Positions 18,951-62,521 of a stretch of DNA of 62,568 nt are shown in pieces; the first letter of the stretch is position 1; every line of letters begins with the position of its first letter. A program made the position numbers and the translations under genes. This DNA is from a virus. The stretch spans positions 1-62,568 of IMG/VR virus record IMGVR_UViG_3300044953_000267; one strand, 5' to 3'. Under the pieces are notes generated by a model that had not been told where the DNA came from, ran no database searches, and saw nothing but the letters and a program-made list of their open reading frames with translations.

Positions 18951-20135
18951 TTAAAGTAACCAAGTTAAATTTTCTTTTTTATTACTTCCCAAATTCATTT
19001 GCCATGCTTCATGTGCTTCTAAATTATTTGGTTTGTACACTGCTTCTGAAGCTCCGGTTCTATTAATTCCACTTAATAAAGATTTATTTAAGTCGATTCC
19101 TTGTTGACGCAACTTTAATGCAGTATCTCTGACCCACAATCCTATTCCAAATGACATAACTAAATCGTCATGATGATTTGGCATAGCTTCAGGTTTATTA
19201 CCATTCCATATAAATGTGCTTAATTCGTTCATTAAACGAACTGAACGAACTTCAATACTACGTTCTCTAAAATACATTTCCATTCTAGATACCAATAATG
19301 GTCTTGTTTTCATCGTAGTTGTAAACCCCGGAACCATTTTCTTTTCTTCTCTATAGTATTTGTTACTCAATTGTCTTTCAACGTCTACATATTGAAGATC
19401 TGCGCTGCTATAAAATGTATTTGGATACTGTCTGTCAATAATTTGTTGTAATACTGCCCATCCAATGTTTGCATTTTCTACAACCAACAATGCATTGTTA
19501 TATTCGGTTGCCGCTCCTACCAAAAAGTTACCATAATCTTTAGTTCCTATTTGTCCTTGATATTCAGCAACTTGAGTAAAGCTTTCAACGTCAATTACGT
19601 GAAATGCACTATAATCTGAACTATCACCACGAGCTACGTCAGCACTAATTATATAGTTACGAGTATAGTCTGGATATTCCCAAATCCAATATCCTTTATC
19701 TATTCCTCTCATTTCAATTGGATCTTTTACTTTTTCTGCTTTATAAAATTCTATTGTTGGAATTTCAATAACAGTATTACCGGTTGTTGTAAAATCACAA
19801 TTATGTGATACAATACCATCTACATAGAATAAGTTTCCTCCAGCAACATTAACTATATCATATAATTCTATCTGGGAATTTATAATCTTCTTTGCTTTTA
19901 CAAATGTTAAAATTGAGTTTTCACTATCTATTTCATCTCCAATATTTAATAATTCCGCAGCTATTTCTTTTTCTTTTTGTATGAATTTATGTTCTTTTGA
20001 ACATTTAATAATTTTATTGTTTGATAACAATATTTCAACATAAGAATCTTTAATGACTTTTCTTAAACCAGAGAACGATTGATATCCACTTGGAGTTAAA
20101 ATTTTGTATTTATTGTTATTTTTTAAAGAAATCAT
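18951..20135 (-). CDS. 17: C-terminal half of a split-intein large terminase: C-intein plus TerL nuclease domain
   Basis: 394 residues. Residues 1-112 are a C-intein that carries intein block B (IIKCSKEHKF), block F (LYDIVNVAGGNLFYVDG) and the splice end IVSHN, followed by Cys+1 at 113. The extein from CDFTTTGNTVIEI onward is the second part of gp17, with its RNase H-like nuclease: ISADVARGDSSDYSAFHVID (first Asp), LLVVENANIGW (Glu) and PNHHDDLVMSFGIGLW (third acidic site). N-terminal MISLKNNNKYKILTPSGYQS resembles the start of the AceL-TerL C-intein, where block B also lies in the C-half. The start overlaps the endonuclease stop (ATGA), so translation is coupled. The expected spliced TerL is 246 + 282 = 528 residues. 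Confidence 0.92.
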   Translation of the reverse strand: MISLKNNNKYKILTPSGYQSFSGLRKVIKDSYVEILLSNNKIIKCSKEHKFIQKEKEIAAELLNIGDEIDSENSILTFVKAKKIINSQIELYDIVNVAGGNLFYVDGIVSHNCDFTTTGNTVIEIPTIEFYKAEKVKDPIEMRGIDKGYWIWEYPDYTRNYIISADVARGDSSDYSAFHVIDVESFTQVAEYQGQIGTKDYGNFLVGAATEYNNALLVVENANIGWAVLQQIIDRQYPNTFYSSADLQYVDVERQLSNKYYREEKKMVPGFTTTMKTRPLLVSRMEMYFRERSIEVRSVRLMNELSTFIWNGNKPEAMPNHHDDLVMSFGIGLWVRDTALKLRQQGIDLNKSLLSGINRTGASEAVYKPNNLEAHEAWQMNLGSNKKENLTWLL

Positions 20136-20872
20136 ATTTTTATTCTTATGAATTTACATTTTAGATGGTTTTTAATTTCAATTTGTCGTATTTTATCTTT
20201 TTTTAAATACTTTGGATTGTTATGACGATTTTCATCTATTTCTAATACAACATTTTTTATTGGATCGTAGGCATCTAAAAAATATCCTAACTCTTTTATA
20301 TAAAATTCTCCTCCGTTTTCAGCATGTATAAAATTATATCCGTATTTTTTTCCATAATTTTCAATTATGGATATTGCATTTTTATTATATCTAGGAACTA
20401 TTTGATTACCAATTTTTGATTCTAAATGTTTTAATGTAGATATTCTCTGTTTTCTTTTTGTTTCTATTGAATGTGTTTTTCCCTCCCATGTATTATGATA
20501 TGAAGGACATTTTCTACAAAAAGAAGTCCATACATACTTTTTTCCACATTCACATTTTAATTTATTAATATCACTATTATATTCAATTAAAAATTTTACT
20601 CGATATTTAAAATTATAAGAACCTTTCCACGTTTTTTGTTTTTTTAATATCAATTCTAAAATTTTTGTATGATCATAAATAGATAAATATAGTATTGGAT
20701 TTTTCTTTATTAATATTCTATTTTTTCCTTTTCCGTATAAATGCTTATATAAGTCGTTTTTTTTCAATTCACTAATTGTTTCTGATAATGTATATCTATC
20801 AGTAATCGAATTAAGATTAGTTTTTATCTTCTCCCATCCTCGTTTAACATTAACACTCACTTTTGCATTCAT
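20132..20872 (-). CDS. Vsr-like homing endonuclease between the two terminase/intein halves
   Basis: 246 residues, free-standing. The middle has a zinc-binding pattern (CECGKKYVW..FCRKCPSYH, about 120-141). The C-terminal domain (about 165-246) reads GGEFYI, YFLDAYDPIKNVVLEIDENR, a His directly after, then KKDKIRQIEIKNHLKCKFIR. This spacing of E, D, ExD/E, H and D fits the Vsr-like EDxHD endonucleases described with fractured genes and split inteins. It starts 23 bases inside the N-terminase gene in another frame and ends with an ATGA overlap onto the C-half, so all three cistrons are coupled. It is expected to cut intein-less terminase genes and spread the insert. Confidence 0.85.
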   Translation of the reverse strand: MNAKVSVNVKRGWEKIKTNLNSITDRYTLSETISELKKNDLYKHLYGKGKNRILIKKNPILYLSIYDHTKILELILKKQKTWKGSYNFKYRVKFLIEYNSDINKLKCECGKKYVWTSFCRKCPSYHNTWEGKTHSIETKRKQRISTLKHLESKIGNQIVPRYNKNAISIIENYGKKYGYNFIHAENGGEFYIKELGYFLDAYDPIKNVVLEIDENRHNNPKYLKKDKIRQIEIKNHLKCKFIRIKI

Positions 20873-21704
20873 GTATATACATATTATAGAATTCTTCCAA
20901 TGTTATAAATTTTTTCTCATTCGTTTCTGTGTTTAGAACTGAAATTTTTGACTGTCCCCATAAACAATCACATTCTTGTGCGGATCCTTTTACTCCACTT
21001 AATGCGGTTTGTTCATCTCTCCACTTTTGATTTCTTTCTGGATGTAAGTGCCAAGGCAATTTAATTGTATTAAATTTATTTCTTTTTGCTTCAGCATCAA
21101 CCCATGTTTTATAAAAGAAATTACCAACTCCATTTGGAGTACTCAATATAATTGCACGACCACCTGTACTTAGTGTGTATTGTGCAGAAAGCCATATTTC
21201 TTCAATATTATCAATAAAAGCAGCTTCGTCTATTATTAACAATGAAAGTGCAGCAGAACGACCAGCAGTACCCGCACTACTTTCTGCTTTAATAGTTGCC
21301 CCATTCTTTAATATTAAGGAAAGACGATTATTTTCAGCAAATGGAACTTTTAACCAAGATGGTAAATTATCATTTGCAAAACGAACACGAGTCACTATTT
21401 CTTTACTGGTTTCTTGTGTAATACTAATACAACGAATATTTTTATCTGTATGAAACACCATCATCCATAAACTATATGCCGCTACTAATGTACTAATACC
21501 CATTTGACGAGCTTTTAATATAATATTAAAATCATGTTCAACAATACCAGTTAATGCTTCTTCTTGAAATGGATATAAATCAAAATTAATTGTACCACGA
21601 ATAGGATGTTGAATCTTGACATATTTCTTCATGAAATATATCGGATCTTTTAAACATTTTTTATACTCTTCCTTAATTATTTCTTTTAATGTTTTTTCAG
21701 ACAT
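20850..21704 (-). CDS. 17: N-terminal half of a split-intein large terminase: TerL ATPase domain plus N-intein
   Basis: 284 residues. Residues 1-246 are the gp17 ATPase with Walker A-like KARQMGISTLVAAYSLW and Walker B LSLLIIDEAAFID, followed by LSTPNGVGNFFYKTW (coupling motif) and ending SGVKGSAQECD. Residue 247 begins a 38-residue N-intein with Cys1 (CLWGQSKISVLNTETNEK, intein block A) running to the stop. This is far shorter than the usual ~90-100 residue N-inteins, since block B is in the other half. The junction ECD/CDF places the insertion in the ATPase-nuclease linker region where T4-like TerL has a CxF motif. Its start overlaps the upstream gene by 8 bases. Confidence 0.93.
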   Translation of the reverse strand: MSEKTLKEIIKEEYKKCLKDPIYFMKKYVKIQHPIRGTINFDLYPFQEEALTGIVEHDFNIILKARQMGISTLVAAYSLWMMVFHTDKNIRCISITQETSKEIVTRVRFANDNLPSWLKVPFAENNRLSLILKNGATIKAESSAGTAGRSAALSLLIIDEAAFIDNIEEIWLSAQYTLSTGGRAIILSTPNGVGNFFYKTWVDAEAKRNKFNTIKLPWHLHPERNQKWRDEQTALSGVKGSAQECDCLWGQSKISVLNTETNEKKFITLEEFYNMYIHECKSEC

Positions 21705-27975: not shown

Positions 27976-30900
27976 TTATATATGAACAATCTTAGAAAAA
28001 CCATTTTCCTTTTTGATCTCCAACTGAGTATCAACCATGTCTTTCATAATATCCAAATGGCTTACTACCCATACAAAATCAAAATTGAACTTAAAGTAAG
28101 ACAATAATGATGACATTGAATTTAGATTTTCTTTATCTGCACATCCAAATCCTTCATCAATTGCTATAAAATTAGGACGTGGTAAATTTGATATATTGAT
28201 TAATGCAACCCTAATCGCCAATGAAGATACAAAACGTTCTAATCCACTTGCCATTTCAAGTGCCCATTTTTTACCATCATAATTTATATATCCAATTACA
28301 TTTTTACCATCAGTTTTTAATTCAATAGTAAACTCGACAATTTGTTGTAAAATATTATTTATCTCACCTTCAAGCGTAGGTAACGCCTGAGAAATTAAGT
28401 CATATGGAATTCCATCTCTATCAACTGCCATAACATAATATTTATACGCTTCCTGTTCTAACTGTAGAACCTTTGAGTGTTTGATAGTTTCTTCATAATT
28501 TTTCTTTTGTTCATTTGCAACAGTTTTCTTACCTGTAAAATCAATCAATTTCTTATTAGAAGCTTTTATAGAATCTTCTATAGTTTTAATAATTCCTTTA
28601 ATAGAAATAATGTTTTGATTAATTATTTTATTCTTTTCTATTGCTTCTTTTTCTTTATGATATGCATTAATTTGAGTTTCTATCTTTTGAAGTTCATGTT
28701 CAATAGACTGAATTCTATTTTCATTCTTTAATATTAAATTAGATTCGATATTAATTTTATTTTGAATTTCATTTTTCTTTTTCTCTAACTCTTGATATTC
28801 ATTATTTTTATCAACTGTATATTCTAATTTTTTTGCGTCTTCATTAAGTTTTTGTTCTTCTTTTAATAAAGAATTATAATCAGTTTCTAATATTTTGAGA
28901 TCTTCAATCGTTTGTGTAAGTTCTTTTACAATAGCATTACTTCGACATGCTTCACAGTCTGGATTATATTTGTGTTCCTTTAACTTATTAATACGCTTTG
29001 TCTTTGTATCAATATCATATTTTTTAAAATTGATTTTAGATTTTACTTCCTTGCCCAATTCAATTAGTTCATTATATTTAATAGTATCATCTTTTAATTT
29101 ATTTAAATCAATTTTCTGAATATTTTTATTTTCAGATTCGAGTAAAGATTCAAATTGTGTAAGATAAGGCTTTTGTTTATTAACTAATTCAATTAAATCT
29201 TGTCTTTCTTTTGTTAACTTTGTTTTAGAAGTATTTAATTCATCTATGTTTGTAGGTGCATTTTCTGTGTTTATAAGTTTCTTCGATTCTTCTAGAAGTT
29301 TTTCATTCTGAATTGATAGTTTGTCATTCAATATATTTAAAGCAGCATTTTCTTTGTTTAATTCTGCATCTAAAATAACAATATCATGTAATCTTTCTTC
29401 TAATAATCTAGGATAATCTGTTTTTTCATAGGTTTTTAACAAGGTATTTATTTCTTTTGACTTATCTTTTGATGCCTCTGTCAATTTATCGAAAATAGTA
29501 ATTCCCATAAATTTAGAAATTAGATCTTTTCGATCAGCTTGTCCCATATCAATAAAACTTCCTTGATTATTGTTTTGAATACTCAAAACAGTCAATAAAA
29601 AGTCTTCATATGTACCAAGATATTCACGAATTACATCGTTAGTATTGCGTCTAGCTTCTCCATTTAAGTCTTCAATATTACCATTTATGTTACGGTAAAC
29701 TTTTACATCAACTTTTACATTACCCTTCTTATCTTGTACACCTTTGCGTTCAATAAAGTAATCTATATTATCAATTTCAAAGTTAAATTTACAGTTGAAA
29801 CTCATTTTTTGAGTATTCATCACATGAATTGCTTTAAATGCGCGGTCACATTTATCGAAAATACAGTAACAAAGCGCAGACAAAATACTACTTTTCCCTG
29901 ATGCATTATTTGCGAACAATCCAATAATATTTTTCATATTGGAAAAGTCAATCACATTACCACTTCCATATGAAAACATATTTTCAAATTCAAACTTTTT
30001 TGGTTTCCATCTGATGTTACGAACATTCAAATCTTTACTGATTTGATTATTCATTTCTTTATTAATGTTGTATACTTGTTTAGCCAAATCTTCTTTTAAA
30101 TTGATAGATCTATTCTCGAAAAATGCAGAGATTAATCTATTTTGGTAATCTAAGTTTCCAACATTATTTACATTTAAGTTAGTTACATCAATGATATTTT
30201 TCTTTTCAGATTCTTTAAAGTCTATTTTTTCATAAACAACTTCCAAAACATCAGACGTTTCTTTGATTTTCTTTAAGACTTTTTCTATCTCTGCTTTAAT
30301 TGTTTGATTGCATTTGGCTCTAAGAAACACCTTTTTAGGAAGATTATCCACAGAAGTGTATAACTTTCCATTCTCTATTTCTACTGTGTAAAATCCATAA
30401 TCATTTTGAATTTCAGTATGAGAATATTGCTTTGTTTTTAAATCCCATAAAACATATCCATGTCCATTAATTTTTTCACCATGATTTTGTTGAATCAATG
30501 ATCCGGCATAAACAATTGCTGGTTGACTGTAATTATCACTGTATTCTTGCAAACGTTGATGATGATGAATATCTCCGAGCAAAACAATGTGATGTCCATC
30601 AAACGTATTATTGTTTATAGTTTTACTGGCAATACGAAATCCATAGTCAGTCATAGCATCTTGAACTGTACCATGATATAAAGCAATATGATGTTCAGTT
30701 TCATTCAATGCTTTCTTTGGAATTTTAAAATAATTTATATATTGCGTATAATCATCAAAAACACAATAATGATTAAATAATATATTTCCAAAAACATAAA
30801 TTCCACCATCTCTTAAGAAAAAGAGATTAGGATGATTAATTGCATTAACAACAGGAGACGAACTGTCTAATCTATTTTTATTATTTAGATTAGAATCATG

Positions 30901-31176
30901 ATTTCCGGGAATTAATATTGTAGGACGAAGGTCCGCAATATTTCTAAGAAAATCTACGGCAATTTGTAAACATTCTGGAGTTAGCTCACATTTACTATGA
31001 AATAAGTCTCCCAAAATTGCGACCGCCGTTTCTTGTGGAGTTTTTTGAATTTCAGCATACAATTTTTGAAACACTTGAACATACTCTTCGTGACGCTGAC
31101 GAAGACGAATGTGAATATCTGAAATATGCAAGATATGCGTGAATCGTTTTACTGATGGATATAAGTAATTTATCAT
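27976..31176 (-). CDS. Fused recombination nuclease-ATPase: Mre11-like (gp47) plus Rad50-like (gp46) in one chain
   Basis: 1066 residues in one uninterrupted frame. Residues about 12-340 are a calcineurin-like phosphoesterase: HISDIHIR (D20, H22), ILGDLFH, IPGNHDSN, LYHGTVQ and LLGDIHHHQ, as in T4 gp47/SbcD. From about 385 the chain is Rad50/SbcC-like: Walker A GLFANNASGKSSILSAL (about 418-434), long coiled coils, a zinc-hook CEAC near 738, signature ASGLERFVSSLAIR (about 980) and Walker B NFIAIDEGFG (about 1005). In T4 these are separate genes 47 and 46 (339 and 560 residues) in this order. The complex resects DNA ends for recombination-dependent replication. It is two bases from the primase gene. 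Confidence 0.95.
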   Translation of the reverse strand: MINYLYPSVKRFTHILHISDIHIRLRQRHEEYVQVFQKLYAEIQKTPQETAVAILGDLFHSKCELTPECLQIAVDFLRNIADLRPTILIPGNHDSNLNNKNRLDSSSPVVNAINHPNLFFLRDGGIYVFGNILFNHYCVFDDYTQYINYFKIPKKALNETEHHIALYHGTVQDAMTDYGFRIASKTINNNTFDGHHIVLLGDIHHHQRLQEYSDNYSQPAIVYAGSLIQQNHGEKINGHGYVLWDLKTKQYSHTEIQNDYGFYTVEIENGKLYTSVDNLPKKVFLRAKCNQTIKAEIEKVLKKIKETSDVLEVVYEKIDFKESEKKNIIDVTNLNVNNVGNLDYQNRLISAFFENRSINLKEDLAKQVYNINKEMNNQISKDLNVRNIRWKPKKFEFENMFSYGSGNVIDFSNMKNIIGLFANNASGKSSILSALCYCIFDKCDRAFKAIHVMNTQKMSFNCKFNFEIDNIDYFIERKGVQDKKGNVKVDVKVYRNINGNIEDLNGEARRNTNDVIREYLGTYEDFLLTVLSIQNNNQGSFIDMGQADRKDLISKFMGITIFDKLTEASKDKSKEINTLLKTYEKTDYPRLLEERLHDIVILDAELNKENAALNILNDKLSIQNEKLLEESKKLINTENAPTNIDELNTSKTKLTKERQDLIELVNKQKPYLTQFESLLESENKNIQKIDLNKLKDDTIKYNELIELGKEVKSKINFKKYDIDTKTKRINKLKEHKYNPDCEACRSNAIVKELTQTIEDLKILETDYNSLLKEEQKLNEDAKKLEYTVDKNNEYQELEKKKNEIQNKINIESNLILKNENRIQSIEHELQKIETQINAYHKEKEAIEKNKIINQNIISIKGIIKTIEDSIKASNKKLIDFTGKKTVANEQKKNYEETIKHSKVLQLEQEAYKYYVMAVDRDGIPYDLISQALPTLEGEINNILQQIVEFTIELKTDGKNVIGYINYDGKKWALEMASGLERFVSSLAIRVALINISNLPRPNFIAIDEGFGCADKENLNSMSSLLSYFKFNFDFVWVVSHLDIMKDMVDTQLEIKKENGFSKIVHI

Positions 31177-31178
31177 AA

Positions 31179-32102
31179 TTATTTTAGTTTCAATCTAATC
31201 AAATTTTTAAAAGTTAGTGCTGGCGTATTATTTATTATGTTCCAAGTTTTTTCAAAACCTAATGAAGAAGGATCTTTATCTGGTAACTGAACCATATGTG
31301 TTGGTATTCCATTTTTTAGTAAAAACTCACATATTTCAATTGCATCATCGGTTGCATCATTATCTAACAATACATTTACTTTAGGAACATCTGATTCTAA
31401 TAATTTTGTTTTTAATTTTTCTGACAAATTTTTTCCAAACAAAGGAATACTATTTCGTCTCACTGCAATTGCATCAAATTGTCCTTCAACTAAAGTAATA
31501 GGTTCTTCAAAATTGATAAAGAGTTCAAATCCAATTATGTTTTTACTAGATGAACATAACTTATATTTCATATAATCATTTCCATAATAATCTCTAGCAG
31601 AAAAGAAATTCAAAATTCCATCCGAATCATACGAAGGAATTACAATTCGTCCTTTATATAAACCGGAATCACAATATCCCATATTATATCTTAAAATATC
31701 ATGTCTTCTAATATTTCTTTGTAGTAAATATTTTATTGCATTTTTATAATCAGGATCATTGACGGGCACATACAAAGGTTTAAATTCAGATGGAAGTTCT
31801 ACTTTAGTATCAATTGAACACGACTTATTATTATTTGTTGGTCCTGTATATAATGATAAATCATTTAAAATGATATAGTATTCAGACGAAGCATTAAATT
31901 TTTTAAACAACGATCCTAAACTTACTCCTCTAAAATTGCATACCCAACAATTATATTTACCTGTAAGTAAATTAATTTCAAGTTTTCTTTTATAGTGATT
32001 ACAAATTGGACAAAAGTATACTGCATCAGTTCCTTTTCTAATTTTAGGAGTCTGATTTAGTAATTTATTCAGAGTTGTTAAAATTAATTCTTGCTTCAAC
32101 AT
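31179..32102 (-). CDS. 61: DNA primase, T4 gp61 / DnaG-type
   Basis: 307 residues. The zinc-binding domain has C31, C34, C52 and C55 (FCPICNHY, YNCWVCNFRG). A Toprim domain follows with ITLVEGQFDAIAVRR near residue 205 (catalytic Glu) and VNVLLDNDATDDA near 247 (Asp pair). It makes RNA primers for lagging-strand synthesis with the gp41 helicase, which is not in this window. It is encoded in a replication/recombination cluster with the fused nuclease and a RuvC-like gene. Confidence 0.9.
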   Translation of the reverse strand: MLKQELILTTLNKLLNQTPKIRKGTDAVYFCPICNHYKRKLEINLLTGKYNCWVCNFRGVSLGSLFKKFNASSEYYIILNDLSLYTGPTNNNKSCSIDTKVELPSEFKPLYVPVNDPDYKNAIKYLLQRNIRRHDILRYNMGYCDSGLYKGRIVIPSYDSDGILNFFSARDYYGNDYMKYKLCSSSKNIIGFELFINFEEPITLVEGQFDAIAVRRNSIPLFGKNLSEKLKTKLLESDVPKVNVLLDNDATDDAIEICEFLLKNGIPTHMVQLPDKDPSSLGFEKTWNIINNTPALTFKNLIRLKLK

Positions 32103-32751: not shown

Positions 32752-33285
32752 TTAATACATAGAACATACTATTGAATCATACATATCAAAATTTCGATCA
32801 TCCCAATTTCCATTCTTTTTAAATTTATCCCATTTCGATAACGATACTATCTTTTCTAATTCAGATTTAACAAATTGTTTGGATGGTATTCCTTTAATTC
32901 TACATTTACCAAATGCCTTTTTTCTCATTTTATTTACACTAATTAAATTAACAGGAATTTTCCAATGCTCTCCTATAATGTATTCAAAAATAGCATTGAA
33001 TCTAGCTAATTTTATTATAACTTGCTGACTTGTTCTGCCTCCCATAAATCCACTAAGGGCAGCTTCTAAATTTATTTTTTCTATATCTTTTATTAGTTTA
33101 TTATTATCTAATACAAAAATAACATGTAAAGTTTTATCTTTATTATTTTGTAATTTACTGATATCAATAAATCCACAATCTAATATCTCACCAGAATGTT
33201 CTTTACGACCATTGGGTCCGATTCCATCATTAAAAAAAGACCACCCAACGGTGGCCGTACTAGCATCAAATCCTAAAATAACCAT
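32752..33285 (-). CDS. RuvC-like Holliday junction resolvase / RNase H-fold nuclease
   Basis: 177 residues. The first strand ILGFDASTATVGWSFF carries D7 in the RuvC DxSxxxxG pattern. A second acidic site lies in KINLEAALSGF near residue 73, and a C-terminal DMYDSIVCSMY gives the last Asp residues (167/170). A basic stretch (NKMRKKAFGKCRIKG) lies between. T4 uses the unrelated endonuclease VII, so here branch resolution before packaging would be by a RuvC-type enzyme. It is grouped with primase and gp46/47. Confidence 0.85.
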   Translation of the reverse strand: MVILGFDASTATVGWSFFNDGIGPNGRKEHSGEILDCGFIDISKLQNNKDKTLHVIFVLDNNKLIKDIEKINLEAALSGFMGGRTSQQVIIKLARFNAIFEYIIGEHWKIPVNLISVNKMRKKAFGKCRIKGIPSKQFVKSELEKIVSLSKWDKFKKNGNWDDRNFDMYDSIVCSMY

Positions 33286-33631: not shown

Positions 33632-35947
33632 TTAAATATCCCATTTAACTAAAATATTTAAAGGTAATTCCCCAGAATTTTTTATGGGTGTGCCTAATTT
33701 TGCAATAGCGACTAATTCAGTTCCAGAATACAATCCAATTGATGTCACATATGGAGCCAAATACGAGCCGGTTTTATCTAATGAAGAACTATATTGAAAA
33801 TTAAAAAATTCAGGAACTATTTTTCCATATCCATTTTTTCCAACTTGTGTGTCTAAATATGAAATAATTGATTCTAACGCTTTGCGGGTAGATTTTGTAT
33901 CTACAAATTTAAACACTGTATTTTTATCAAGTTTGTTTATAAAATACTTCCATATCAAATACATGTCACTAAATGATATTTTATTATTACCATCAATATC
34001 AAATAAATCATATACAGATTCAAGTTTAGTTGTATATGAAGCTAAATATGTAGAAGGAACATTAGTTAAATTATATTTGGAATAATAATATAAAAACCAG
34101 TAATATTCTCCTTCATCGAATGTAAAATAATTAAACCATTCTTGGTCTGCGTTTAACATATTACTAATATATCTAAAAATAAGATCCAAATCAATAAAAC
34201 TAAACTGTTGATTATTATCAATATCAAAATTAAATGTATTTCTTATTAAAGCCGTTGGGTTTGTACTATAATTAAATTCTCCCGGTTCTACTCGACAAAC
34301 AATTTGCTTTTCATATAAAGTAACTTGAGATTGATAATTTATATCAAATTTAGGAGCTTGGGAATTTATACGATTTTTTAGTAAATTATCAAAATCAGAT
34401 CCACTATTAGATAAAATTAATTTTCCATTTCTATAAAAAACATTACCAACTTGATAGTTTCTCGTTAAATTTTTTATATCATAAATATATGACAATCCGA
34501 ATACACTAGATGAGAAAGAACCAGTAATATTTTCAGGGTCATGTAAATTTACTGGAGAACCAACAATTATATCATCATTTGTGATAGAAATACTTTGTCC
34601 AAATGTAGAATGCGGATAATTTATTTTTTTCTTTTTTGTGACTAAATCAAACATATCCCATTGAGGATCTAATAATGACGATGTATTAAGTTTATAAATT
34701 TGAAATTGTCCTATTATCAAATTAGTTGAATTAAACACATCGTTGATAGTATTAGCTATATAACTTGAAGAATACGTGGTGATATCTAATACACTAGATG
34801 CAACTGCATAAGTGTTTGTCATATCAACACAATATCCAAAATTGTTCGTTTTTTGTAAATCAGCATCACCAAATGATTTTTCTATCAAATAATAATCTGT
34901 TGCGTCATTACATTTATTATAAAAATATACCGCTCCTCTATTTCTTAATGTAGATGCACCTTCATATTCACGATAATACATGTCACTTGGAGATCCAACC
35001 ATTAGAAAATCTCCGTATAATGCTACACTTCGACCATATCCGCTTCCACTTGCAACATTTTCAATATAAGGAGGAAAATCTACATTATTTAAAGAACCAG
35101 TTAATGTTCTATCTTCAAAAACAGTTTCTGATTTTGCCCAGAACCCGGTAGATGAATTATAAGTATAAACATCAACGCCAAAAATTGACGACGTTGAAAA
35201 ATTACCAACGGCAATTCGCTTTGAACCGCTTGGATCAATTTTTACAGATCCTCCGTATCTATGTCCAGCCGCAGACCCTGAAAAACTTTGATACAAATCC
35301 CAAGTATTGCTTAACGATTGAGTATAAATATAAAATGCTCCTGACGTATTACTAGATAAACTAGAACCTACAACCAACACGTTTCCAGCAAGAGATATAG
35401 ATTCTCCAAGCGTATTGTTTACTTCGTAAGATGAGCTGTTGTATATAACATAACTTGGAGATGCCACACTTGCACTTGATGTTATTGAACTTAAATTATA
35501 CAATTCTATTGTTGCAGAGCCAGTCAATATAGCAGATGTAGGAAAATTTTTATAATAAAAATAAGGACATCCTATTGCTAATATAGAACCAGATAAAGAT
35601 ACTGATGTTCCAAATCCATCACTTAGTTTTATAATACTAGCTGAGTCAAGATCGATTAATAAATTTAAACCATTTGCATTTGATGATGTATCTGCATTCA
35701 AAAATGTTTCTATAGCACTACTCGTATCAACTGCTAAAACAGAATTATCATTAAATGAATATGTCTTCTTTATGTTTTTTAAATATTGATAACTGTCATA
35801 TTCACTAGAATACTTATAAACATATACACTACCTGTTCCTACATAAGTGTTATGTAAATAAAAAGAAGAAGGATTTCCGATAACTGCATATGTTGCATTT
35901 ATATCGGTTGCCGTTCCATATTTAAATTTTTCAAAATTTTCGCTCAT
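33632..35947 (-). CDS. Tail appendage protein: seven-blade FG-GAP-type beta-propeller, dockerin-like pair, shared baseplate C-domain
   Basis: 771 residues. Seven repeats of the FG-GAP type are visible at the N-terminus: YGTATDINATYAVIGNPS, FGTSVSLSGSILAIGCPY, LGESISLAGNVLVVGSSL, YGGSVKI...RIAVGNF, YGRSVALYGDFLMVGSPS, FGYCVDMTNTYAVASSV and FGQSISITNDDIIVGSPV (to about 465). Two dockerin/EF-hand-like calcium motifs follow: FDIDNNQQFSFIDLDLIFRY near 575 and DIDGNNKISFSDMYLIWKYF near 650. The C-terminus (SIGLYSGTELVAIAKLGTPI) matches that of the 365-residue protein at 36574. A carbohydrate- or protein-binding tail role is likely. Confidence 0.8.
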   Translation of the reverse strand: MSENFEKFKYGTATDINATYAVIGNPSSFYLHNTYVGTGSVYVYKYSSEYDSYQYLKNIKKTYSFNDNSVLAVDTSSAIETFLNADTSSNANGLNLLIDLDSASIIKLSDGFGTSVSLSGSILAIGCPYFYYKNFPTSAILTGSATIELYNLSSITSSASVASPSYVIYNSSSYEVNNTLGESISLAGNVLVVGSSLSSNTSGAFYIYTQSLSNTWDLYQSFSGSAAGHRYGGSVKIDPSGSKRIAVGNFSTSSIFGVDVYTYNSSTGFWAKSETVFEDRTLTGSLNNVDFPPYIENVASGSGYGRSVALYGDFLMVGSPSDMYYREYEGASTLRNRGAVYFYNKCNDATDYYLIEKSFGDADLQKTNNFGYCVDMTNTYAVASSVLDITTYSSSYIANTINDVFNSTNLIIGQFQIYKLNTSSLLDPQWDMFDLVTKKKKINYPHSTFGQSISITNDDIIVGSPVNLHDPENITGSFSSSVFGLSYIYDIKNLTRNYQVGNVFYRNGKLILSNSGSDFDNLLKNRINSQAPKFDINYQSQVTLYEKQIVCRVEPGEFNYSTNPTALIRNTFNFDIDNNQQFSFIDLDLIFRYISNMLNADQEWFNYFTFDEGEYYWFLYYYSKYNLTNVPSTYLASYTTKLESVYDLFDIDGNNKISFSDMYLIWKYFINKLDKNTVFKFVDTKSTRKALESIISYLDTQVGKNGYGKIVPEFFNFQYSSSLDKTGSYLAPYVTSIGLYSGTELVAIAKLGTPIKNSGELPLNILVKWDI

Positions 35948-61469: not shown

Positions 61470-61559
61470 TGGCGGTAGAGGAGGGATTCGAACCCCCAGA
61501 GGCTTTGATACCTCTGCGGTTTTCAAGACCGCCACCTTAGTCCACTCAGCCACCCTACC
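61470..61559 (-). tRNA. tRNA-Ser (anticodon UGA)
   Basis: On the minus strand the molecule folds with acceptor GGTAGGG/CTCTACC (one G·U), D-arm, anticodon stem GCGGT/ACCGC with loop CTTGAAA (anticodon TGA), a long class II variable arm (AGAGG...CCTCT), T-arm with GTTCGAATC, discriminator G and an encoded CCA. It reads UCA codons, which are frequent in this AT-rich genome. Confidence 0.95.
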
Positions 61560-61566
61560 ATGAAAT

Positions 61567-61767
61567 TTATTCTTCTTCTTCCTTTGAAGATTTAGTGATC
61601 TTCAAACTCAAATCACCATTTGCTTCTTCAACTACAGCTTTGATCTCATTTTCAAGCTCTTTAATCTTTTCCTTATAGCCAGCCGCTACATCCTTGAAGT
61701 CTTTTTTTGTAAAAATTAACTTTTCTGTTAATTCATAAACCTTTTTTTCTGCTTCTGTTTTTGTCAT
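61567..61767 (-). CDS. Small coiled-coil protein
   Basis: 66 residues, charged helix throughout (KKVYELTEKLIFTKKDFKDV, ELENEIKAVVEE), with an acidic end EEEE. A late-promoter-like AATAAATA lies 25 bases upstream on the minus strand. The function is unknown. It lies between tRNA-Ser and tmRNA. Confidence 0.65.
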   Translation of the reverse strand: MTKTEAEKKVYELTEKLIFTKKDFKDVAAGYKEKIKELENEIKAVVEEANGDLSLKITKSSKEEEE

Positions 61768-61792
61768 ATGTTAATATATATTGTAAATATTT

Positions 61793-61800
61793 TATTTATT
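61793..61800 (-). promoter_or_regulatory. Candidate late promoter (AATAAATA)
   Basis: NATAAATA-type element on the minus strand 25 bases upstream of the 66-residue coiled-coil gene, just after the tmRNA 3' end. Confidence 0.4.
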
Positions 61801-61809
61801 CGAGAAATT

Positions 61810-62192
61810 TGGTGGACGTGGCGAGAGTCGAACTCGCGTGTTTAATATATTAACTATACCAGACTACATGTTTATTCATTTTGAATTTGTTTGTGACAAT
61901 TCTAATAAATGAAAAACAAAATTGTCCTTTAGATTGCTCAATGTTCAATCATATAACACAATCCGATTATATAATTTACTCTGATAAATGTCATTTACTG
62001 TAATATCAGATATTTTACAATAAACGGGCTACCTTTTAATTAGGCAGCAACGGCGACTTCATCATAAGAGAAGTCATATGCAATTACATTGTCGTCTGCA
62101 TTTAGTTTTTTAATGGATTTTTTAGGAAGCCAACCATTATCTTCCACATGCCTAGCATAACTAGTTTATTAAATCGAAACCAGTACACGCCC
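61810..62192 (-). ncRNA. ssrA: Phage-encoded tmRNA (ssrA)
   Basis: The minus strand gives acceptor GGGCGTG (5') paired with CACGTCC (3'), an encoded CCA, a 3' T-arm GCGAGTTCGACTCTCGC and a 5' TGGTTTCGA segment, about 383 bases. An internal frame, 62040-62099, starts with GCA after TAAAT and encodes ADDNVIAYDFSYDEVAVAA then TAA, so it is a proteolysis tag ending in VAA rather than LAA. tmRNA rescues ribosomes stalled on broken mRNAs, and the tag would mark the products for degradation. It is in one piece, not circularly permuted. Confidence 0.93.
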
Positions 62193-62250
62193 GTAAATTT
62201 ATTATTTTTTTATTTATATTTTAATATTTATTATAGAAAGGATATTTACT

Positions 62251-62391
62251 ATGATTCTAACTATTATTTTAGTATTAGCAACTGCTGTTGGTGTATTCTT
62301 GTTTGTAAAGAATAATCCTCTTAGAGCAAAGAAAATCGATGATGTTGCAAAAAAAGTAATCAGCGAAGTTGAAGAAGCTATTAAAAAATAA
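62251..62391 (+). CDS. Small single-span membrane protein (46 residues)
   Basis: Starts MILTIILVLATAVGVFLFVK (membrane segment about 3-19), then a charged amphipathic helix (IDDVAKKVISEVEEAIKK). An AAGGATATTT ribosome binding site precedes the ATG and a strong terminator follows, so it is a clear one-gene transcript opposite to its neighbours. It could be a small phage membrane or stress peptide, with no known family. Confidence 0.75.
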   Translation: MILTIILVLATAVGVFLFVKNNPLRAKKIDDVAKKVISEVEEAIKK

Positions 62392-62411
62392 ATATATAAA
62401 AGTTACTTTTC

Positions 62412-62439
62412 AAGCCGTACTTATGTACGGCTTTTTTAT
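62412..62439 (+). terminator. Rho-independent terminator after the small plus-strand gene
   Basis: A perfect 9-bp stem aagccgtac/gtacggctt with TTAT loop is followed by TTTTTATTT on the plus strand. Confidence 0.9.
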
Positions 62440-62446
62440 TTAAAAA

Positions 62447-62521
62447 TGGCAGGGGATGCTGGAGTCGAACCAACTTCTTCTCGTTCAAAGCGAGACATAA
62501 TAGCCATTATACTAATCCCCC
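62447..62521 (-). tRNA. tRNA-Gln (anticodon UUG)
   Basis: On the minus strand the acceptor GGGGGAT/ATCCCCT (first pair G·U) frames a D-arm, anticodon stem TCTCG/CGAGA with loop CTTTGAA (anticodon TTG), a T-arm with TTGGTTCGACTCCAG, discriminator G and CCA encoded. It reads CAA, frequent in this genome. Confidence 0.92.

What the first reader, a model, noticed from the sequence alone, without database searches (positions are those of the whole stretch)
27976..31176. Single-chain Mre11-Rad50 (gp47-gp46) fusion
One 1066-residue frame has an intact calcineurin-type nuclease domain followed by a complete Rad50-type ATPase with a CxxC zinc hook. T4 and most bacteria encode these as two proteins that assemble as a 2:2 complex. 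A covalent 1:1 chain fixes stoichiometry and geometry.
Basis: partly seen in the sequence, partly recalled or inferred. Interest (0 to 1): 0.75.

Follow-up and report, generated by a model that had tools for sequence, protein, structure and literature searches.

The report
Fused Mre11-Rad50 phage DNA-end enzyme
This phage really does make its DNA-end-processing nuclease and its ATP-driven motor as one protein, but such fused proteins have been described since 2011 and turn out to be standard in a very common family of aquatic phages.

Summary
ORF 27976-31176 (-) is one uninterrupted 1066-residue chain. It holds a complete SbcD/Mre11 nuclease (residues ~7-318), a Rad50-binding helix-loop-helix (~342-379), a linker of about 10 residues, and a complete SbcC/Rad50 ATPase (~390-1066) with a CEAC zinc hook. 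It is not an assembly accident: 111 of 120 related loci carry the same single ORF. The nine others are truncated by contig ends (5), frameshifted (1), split by an insertion (2), or open but only partly aligned (1). A complete Microcystis phage genome carries the fusion too. The novelty does not hold. Yoshida, Claverie and Ogata (2011, PMC3175470) described Mre11/Rad50 fusions in Mimivirus, plasmids, a phage, bacteria and eukaryotes, and noted that R555-like genes are abundant in aquatic viral metagenomes, on scaffolds with phage primases. The locus here has that arrangement, and the nearest viral structure matches are giant-virus 'DNA repair' proteins. The most likely role is the T4 gp46/47 role in one chain: ATP-driven DNA-end tethering and resection for recombination-dependent replication, as a homodimer equal to the canonical 2:2 complex. 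The fusion does not change stoichiometry, and nothing here shows changed geometry. It is a new member of a known kind.

The parts
27976..31176 (-). whole fused sbcD-sbcC (Mre11-Rad50) gene, 1066 aa
30223..31158 (-). Mre11/SbcD nuclease and capping domains (residues ~7-318)
   Evidence: Pfam Metallophos; structure match to SbcD/Mre11, Z up to 24.3; motifs I-V
30040..30153 (-). Rad50-binding helix-loop-helix of Mre11 (residues ~342-379), inferred from two helices and conserved YQN...IN
   Evidence: helices H342-355 and H362-379 in the model; conservation
30010..30039 (-). inter-domain linker (residues ~380-389), ungapped or nearly so in relatives
   Evidence: Rad50 structures align from residue 388-390 with their own residue 1
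29500..30009 (-). Rad50/SbcC N-lobe with Walker A NxxGKS (residues ~390-559)
28957..29499 (-). ascending coiled coil (residues ~560-740)
   Evidence: model secondary structure
28945..28956 (-). zinc hook CEAC (residues 741-744)
   Evidence: C741 invariant and C744 nearly invariant in 22 sequences
28423..28944 (-). descending coiled coil (residues ~745-918)
27979..28422 (-). Rad50/SbcC C-lobe with SG-L-E signature, Walker B IDEGFG and switch His (residues ~919-1066)
31179..32102 (-). DNA primase gene directly upstream, conserved neighbour of the fused gene
   Evidence: phrog_47 5.4e-37; a primase homologue lies upstream in 104 cases, nearly all within 60 bp
32752..33285 (-). RuvC-like resolvase gene in the same cluster (weak match)
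   Evidence: phrog_159 3.5e-4; 20 relatives have a homologue upstream

Best explanation
A phage SbcCD/Mre11-Rad50 enzyme of the Mimivirus R555-like fused type. Two copies of the single chain pair through the Mre11 domains and the ATPase heads, with the zinc hooks at the coiled-coil tips, giving the usual M2R2 machine. ATP binding and hydrolysis by the Rad50 heads controls access of DNA ends or hairpins to the Mre11 nuclease. In the phage it most likely does the T4 gp46/47 job: making and tethering 3' ended DNA for recombination-dependent replication and break repair, expressed with the neighbouring primase. Shown here: one ORF, both complete domains, the conserved catalytic set, long-term conservation of the fused form, and primase linkage. 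Inferred: dimer assembly, enzymatic activity and role in replication.
For: Both domains on one chain. Catalytic positions conserved across 22-24 fused relatives. Model domains match solved SbcD/Mre11 and SbcC/Rad50 structures. Nearest viral structure matches are full-length giant-virus DNA repair proteins (Tupanvirus, Harvfovirus, Catovirus) and Tenacibaculum phages pT24 and PTm1. Fused form in 111/120 related loci and in Microcystis phage Mel-JY01. Primase directly upstream, as reported for aquatic R555-like scaffolds (PMC3175470). Linker ~10 aa against the predicted 9-12 aa.
Against: No biochemical data for any phage fusion of this type were found. Motif V has Asp (D202) where canonical Mre11 has a metal-binding His, and motif II has His (H60) where most have Asp. 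R555 has the same two changes, and RaK2 and a T5-like phage have one each, so activity is likely but not certain. The ABC signature is SG-L/M-E rather than SGGE. The dimer could not be modelled, and the rest of this phage's recombination set is not in the 62.6 kb fragment.
Confidence: 0.88

Rival explanations
1. Two working proteins are still made from the one frame, by an internal translation start before the Rad50 part or by proteolysis of the linker, so the fusion is only formal.
For: Internal ATG/TTG/GTG codons exist at residues 364-420.
Against: None has a convincing Shine-Dalgarno sequence, though the gene's own start has none either. Met375 is present only in the window and its closest relative; most relatives have Leu there. 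Met400 is conserved but would delete the first Rad50 strand, which begins at residue ~389.
Confidence: 0.06
2. Assembly or sequencing artefact joining two genes.
For: None beyond the record being an IMG/VR metagenomic fragment.
Against: The same open frame spans the junction in 111 of 120 related loci, at 28-68% identity in the first scan, and in the complete Mel-JY01 genome.
Confidence: 0.01
3. The fused enzyme has drifted to a different task (for example host DNA breakdown or counter-defence) rather than replication-linked end processing.
For: Changed residues in motifs II and V and the altered ABC signature. In cellular hosts the fused copy mostly coexists with the normal genes, suggesting another role there (PMC3175470).
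Against: Strong linkage to a primase and conservation of the remaining catalytic set point to phage DNA metabolism. T4 gp46/47 itself does both recombination and host DNA degradation.
Confidence: 0.1

Closest known systems
Mimivirus R555 and R555-like Mre11/Rad50 fusion proteins (Yoshida et al. 2011, PMC3175470)
   Same: Same domain order in one chain, same Asp-to-His change in motif II and His-to-Asp change in motif V, linker of about 10 residues, primase genes on the aquatic phage scaffolds
   Different: 1066 aa here against 1351 aa in R555 (shorter coiled coil); the carrier is a tailed phage, not a giant virus of amoebae
Fused protein of Microcystis phage Mel-JY01 (WWT39521.1, annotated only as 'AAA domain containing protein')
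   Same: Full-length relative at 36% identity, single ORF, primase gene just upstream
   Different: One small gene lies between primase and fusion; annotation misses the nuclease half
Tenacibaculum phage pT24 BAV39141.1 ('DNA repair', 1310 aa)
   Same: Mre11 and Rad50 on one chain; joins the fused group in the tree
   Different: Very divergent (long branch), longer, hook CHKC, motif I DFQ
T4 gp47/gp46 and E. coli SbcD/SbcC
   Same: Same two enzymes, same motifs, nuclease gene upstream of ATPase gene
   Different: Two separate genes; T4 has two small genes between them

Membership tests
Mre11/Rad50 (SbcD/SbcC) fusion proteins, R555-like | Mre11-type nuclease and Rad50-type ATPase in one open frame, nuclease first | tested here: met
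Mre11/Rad50 (SbcD/SbcC) fusion proteins, R555-like | Capping and Rad50-binding helix-loop-helix retained, linker of 9-12 residues | tested here: met
   capping to residue 318; helices 342-355 and 362-379, Rad50 from ~389; that the two helices bind Rad50 is inferred from position
Mre11/Rad50 (SbcD/SbcC) fusion proteins, R555-like | R555 hallmark changes: His for the third Asp of DxH-GDxxD-GNHD, and Asp for the motif V His | tested here: met
   H60 and D202, both invariant in the 22-sequence alignment; R555 changes from PMC3175470
Mre11/SbcD nuclease | Complete metal and catalytic set in motifs I-V | tested here: met
   D20, H22, D57, N92, H93, H168, D202 (replacing His), H204
Rad50/SbcC ATPase | Walker A, signature, Walker B, coiled coil with CxxC hook | tested here: met
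   signature is SG-L/M-E rather than SGGE
Rad50/SbcC ATPase | ATP-dependent nuclease complex M2R2 | not testable with these tools
   needs purified protein or a dimer model
T4 gp46/47 type (two separate genes) | Nuclease and ATPase encoded separately | tested here: not met
   single ORF against T4 and RaK2

The most novel reading that the evidence does not exclude
Most tailed-phage fusions of this kind descend from one ancient fusion and have been kept fused across a huge aquatic clade, with a co-altered nuclease centre (GDxxH plus GDIH) that changes metal use or substrate choice. In that reading it would be a functionally distinct branch of Mre11-Rad50, not just a linked version.
Probability: 0.15. 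Interest if true: 0.4.

Novelty: new member of a known kind. Interest (0 to 1): 0.2.

Why it matters
The fused form offers a compact one-gene version of a well-studied DNA-end machine, useful for structural and biochemical work because both halves are always present in equal amounts. It also shows that the 2011 metagenomic inference (fused Mre11/Rad50 is common in aquatic phages), then confirmed on only a few long sequences, holds with full-length genes in over a hundred contigs. It does not reveal a new system.

Tried and rejected
Assembly artefact: rejected by relatives. Separate Rad50 from an internal start: no conserved start. Recent fusion private to this phage: rejected, since relatives down to 28% identity are fused the same way. 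Split intermediates close to this family: none found among phage records; the next phage hits are distant split pairs and plasmids give only weak matches. An intron in the interrupted copy L036: Rfam gave no group I or II intron. Literature searches for a specific description of the Mel-JY01 protein or later papers on fused phage SbcCD found nothing beyond PMC3175470; the library holds open-licence papers only. Dimer structure: not possible with the tool, and model coordinates are not exposed, so docking of the Rad50-binding helices could not be measured. The tree groups all 21 fused sequences against 5 split ones, but with long branches and without Mimivirus, plasmid or Bacillus phage fusions, so it does not overturn the 2011 conclusion of several fusion events.

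Full report
Observation. The minus-strand ORF 27976-31176 starts with ATG and runs 1066 codons without a stop. Its N-terminal third matches SbcD/Mre11 and the rest matches SbcC/Rad50 (Pfam Metallophos; PHROGs phrog_100 and phrog_77; NCBIfam sbcd and sbcc, below their curated cut-offs; PDB sequences of SbcC, Rad50 and Mre11).

Anatomy. An AlphaFold2 model from 22 fused relatives has mean pLDDT 81 (pTM 0.47, plausibly because of the long coiled coil). Against solved structures, residues 7-318 match SbcD/Mre11 nuclease and capping domains (Z up to 24.3) and residues 390-1066 match Rad50/SbcC heads (Z up to 28.4). Rad50 structures align from residue 388-390 with their own first residue, so the fusion point is essentially exact. 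Between them lie two helices (342-355, 362-379) in the position of the Mre11 Rad50-binding helix-loop-helix, then about 10 residues of linker. The coiled-coil arms are about 175-180 residues each, with the CEAC hook at 741-744. The full Mre11 metal and catalytic set is present, with Asp202 in place of the motif V His and His60 in place of the motif II second Asp. Both changes are also reported for Mimivirus R555; RaK2 gp47 has only the motif II change and a T5-like D12 only the motif V change.

Is the junction real? Of 120 related loci examined, 111 carry one ORF covering both halves (958-1202 codons). Of the others, five (L024, L032, L033, L034, L045) are truncated at or near a contig end, L020 is frameshifted, L022 is a single 1049-codon ORF that the search aligned only in part, and L036 and L088 are split by an insertion. 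The complete genome of Microcystis phage Mel-JY01 has the fusion, annotated only as 'AAA domain containing protein'. This rules out an artefact. No internal start for a separate Rad50 is conserved.

Context. A primase gene abuts the fused gene, and a primase homologue lies upstream in 104 cases, almost always overlapping or within a few bases. Tail sheath, portal, terminase and capsid genes show that the window is a contractile-tailed phage fragment.

Prior knowledge. Yoshida, Claverie and Ogata (PMC3175470) reported Mre11/Rad50 fusions in Mimivirus R555, five bacteria (plasmids in some), six eukaryotes and Bacillus phage 0305phi8-36. They argued from the T. maritima complex that nuclease-first fusion with a 9-12-residue linker fits the normal assembly, and showed that R555-like genes are very abundant in aquatic viral fractions, on scaffolds with phage primases. 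The present protein fits all of these points. In the viral structure library its best full-length matches are giant-virus 'DNA repair' proteins (Tupanvirus, Harvfovirus, Yasminevirus, Catovirus), followed by Tenacibaculum phages pT24 and PTm1. A second, divergent fused group occurs in a 735-kb uncultured phage and ten IMG/VR relatives.

Evolution. A tree of 21 fused and 5 split sequences puts all fused ones on one side of a branch (100/99), with the window next to L002. Long branches and missing giant-virus, plasmid and Bacillus phage sequences mean this only fails to rule out one origin for the phage fusions.

Mechanism. The best-supported reading is that the chain works as T4 gp46/47 or SbcCD does: a homodimer in which ATP-driven head engagement gates the nuclease, used to process and tether DNA ends in recombination-dependent replication. 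Activity, oligomer and role are inferred. The claim that fusion 'fixes stoichiometry and geometry' is weak, because the canonical complex is already 1:1 and no geometric consequence was shown.

Verdict. A real, well-formed and widespread fused Mre11-Rad50; a new member of a known kind, of modest interest. Side observations on genes in pieces (terminase split by an apparent split intein, and two relatives whose fused gene is split inside the nuclease domain) may be worth separate attention.

Noticed in passing
window 18951-21704 (-): Terminase large subunit is in pieces: N-part ORF 20850-21704 ends in a short tail after Cys, then an ORF with a weak NUMOD3 match (20132-20872), then ORF 18951-20135 that starts with a Hint/intein-like domain ending in SHN followed by Cys and the terminase nuclease. 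Looks like an atypically split intein (short N, long C fragment) with a homing endonuclease gene between the halves; resemblance to AceL-TerL and 'fractured genes' is from memory.
   Followed up: partly
L036 1941-6163 (LR756508.1, 484-kb phage): The fused sbcDC gene is interrupted just after the motif V GDIH by an ORF with a TnsA-like nuclease match (PF08722, 5.8e-6); the first piece and the inserted ORF overlap. No Rfam intron found, so it may work as a protein in pieces.
   Followed up: partly
L088 5950-9287: A relative split at the same place into two ORFs with an ATGA overlap and no endonuclease gene; its tail VVREDELESYL resembles that of L036 (VVEEDELEKYL). A pattern scan found the tail only in this contig.
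   Followed up: partly
window 61470-62521 (-): A phage tmRNA gene (tag ADDNVIAYDFSYDEVAVAA) flanked by tRNA-Ser(tga) and tRNA-Gln(ttg).
   Followed up: no
window 33632-35947 (-): 771-aa protein with FG-GAP repeats (7.5e-17) and weak EF-hand matches, probably a virion or adhesion protein.
   Followed up: no
L026 and L005/L027: L026 keeps only one Cys of the zinc hook; L005 and L027 have DIQ instead of DIH in nuclease motif I.
   Followed up: no
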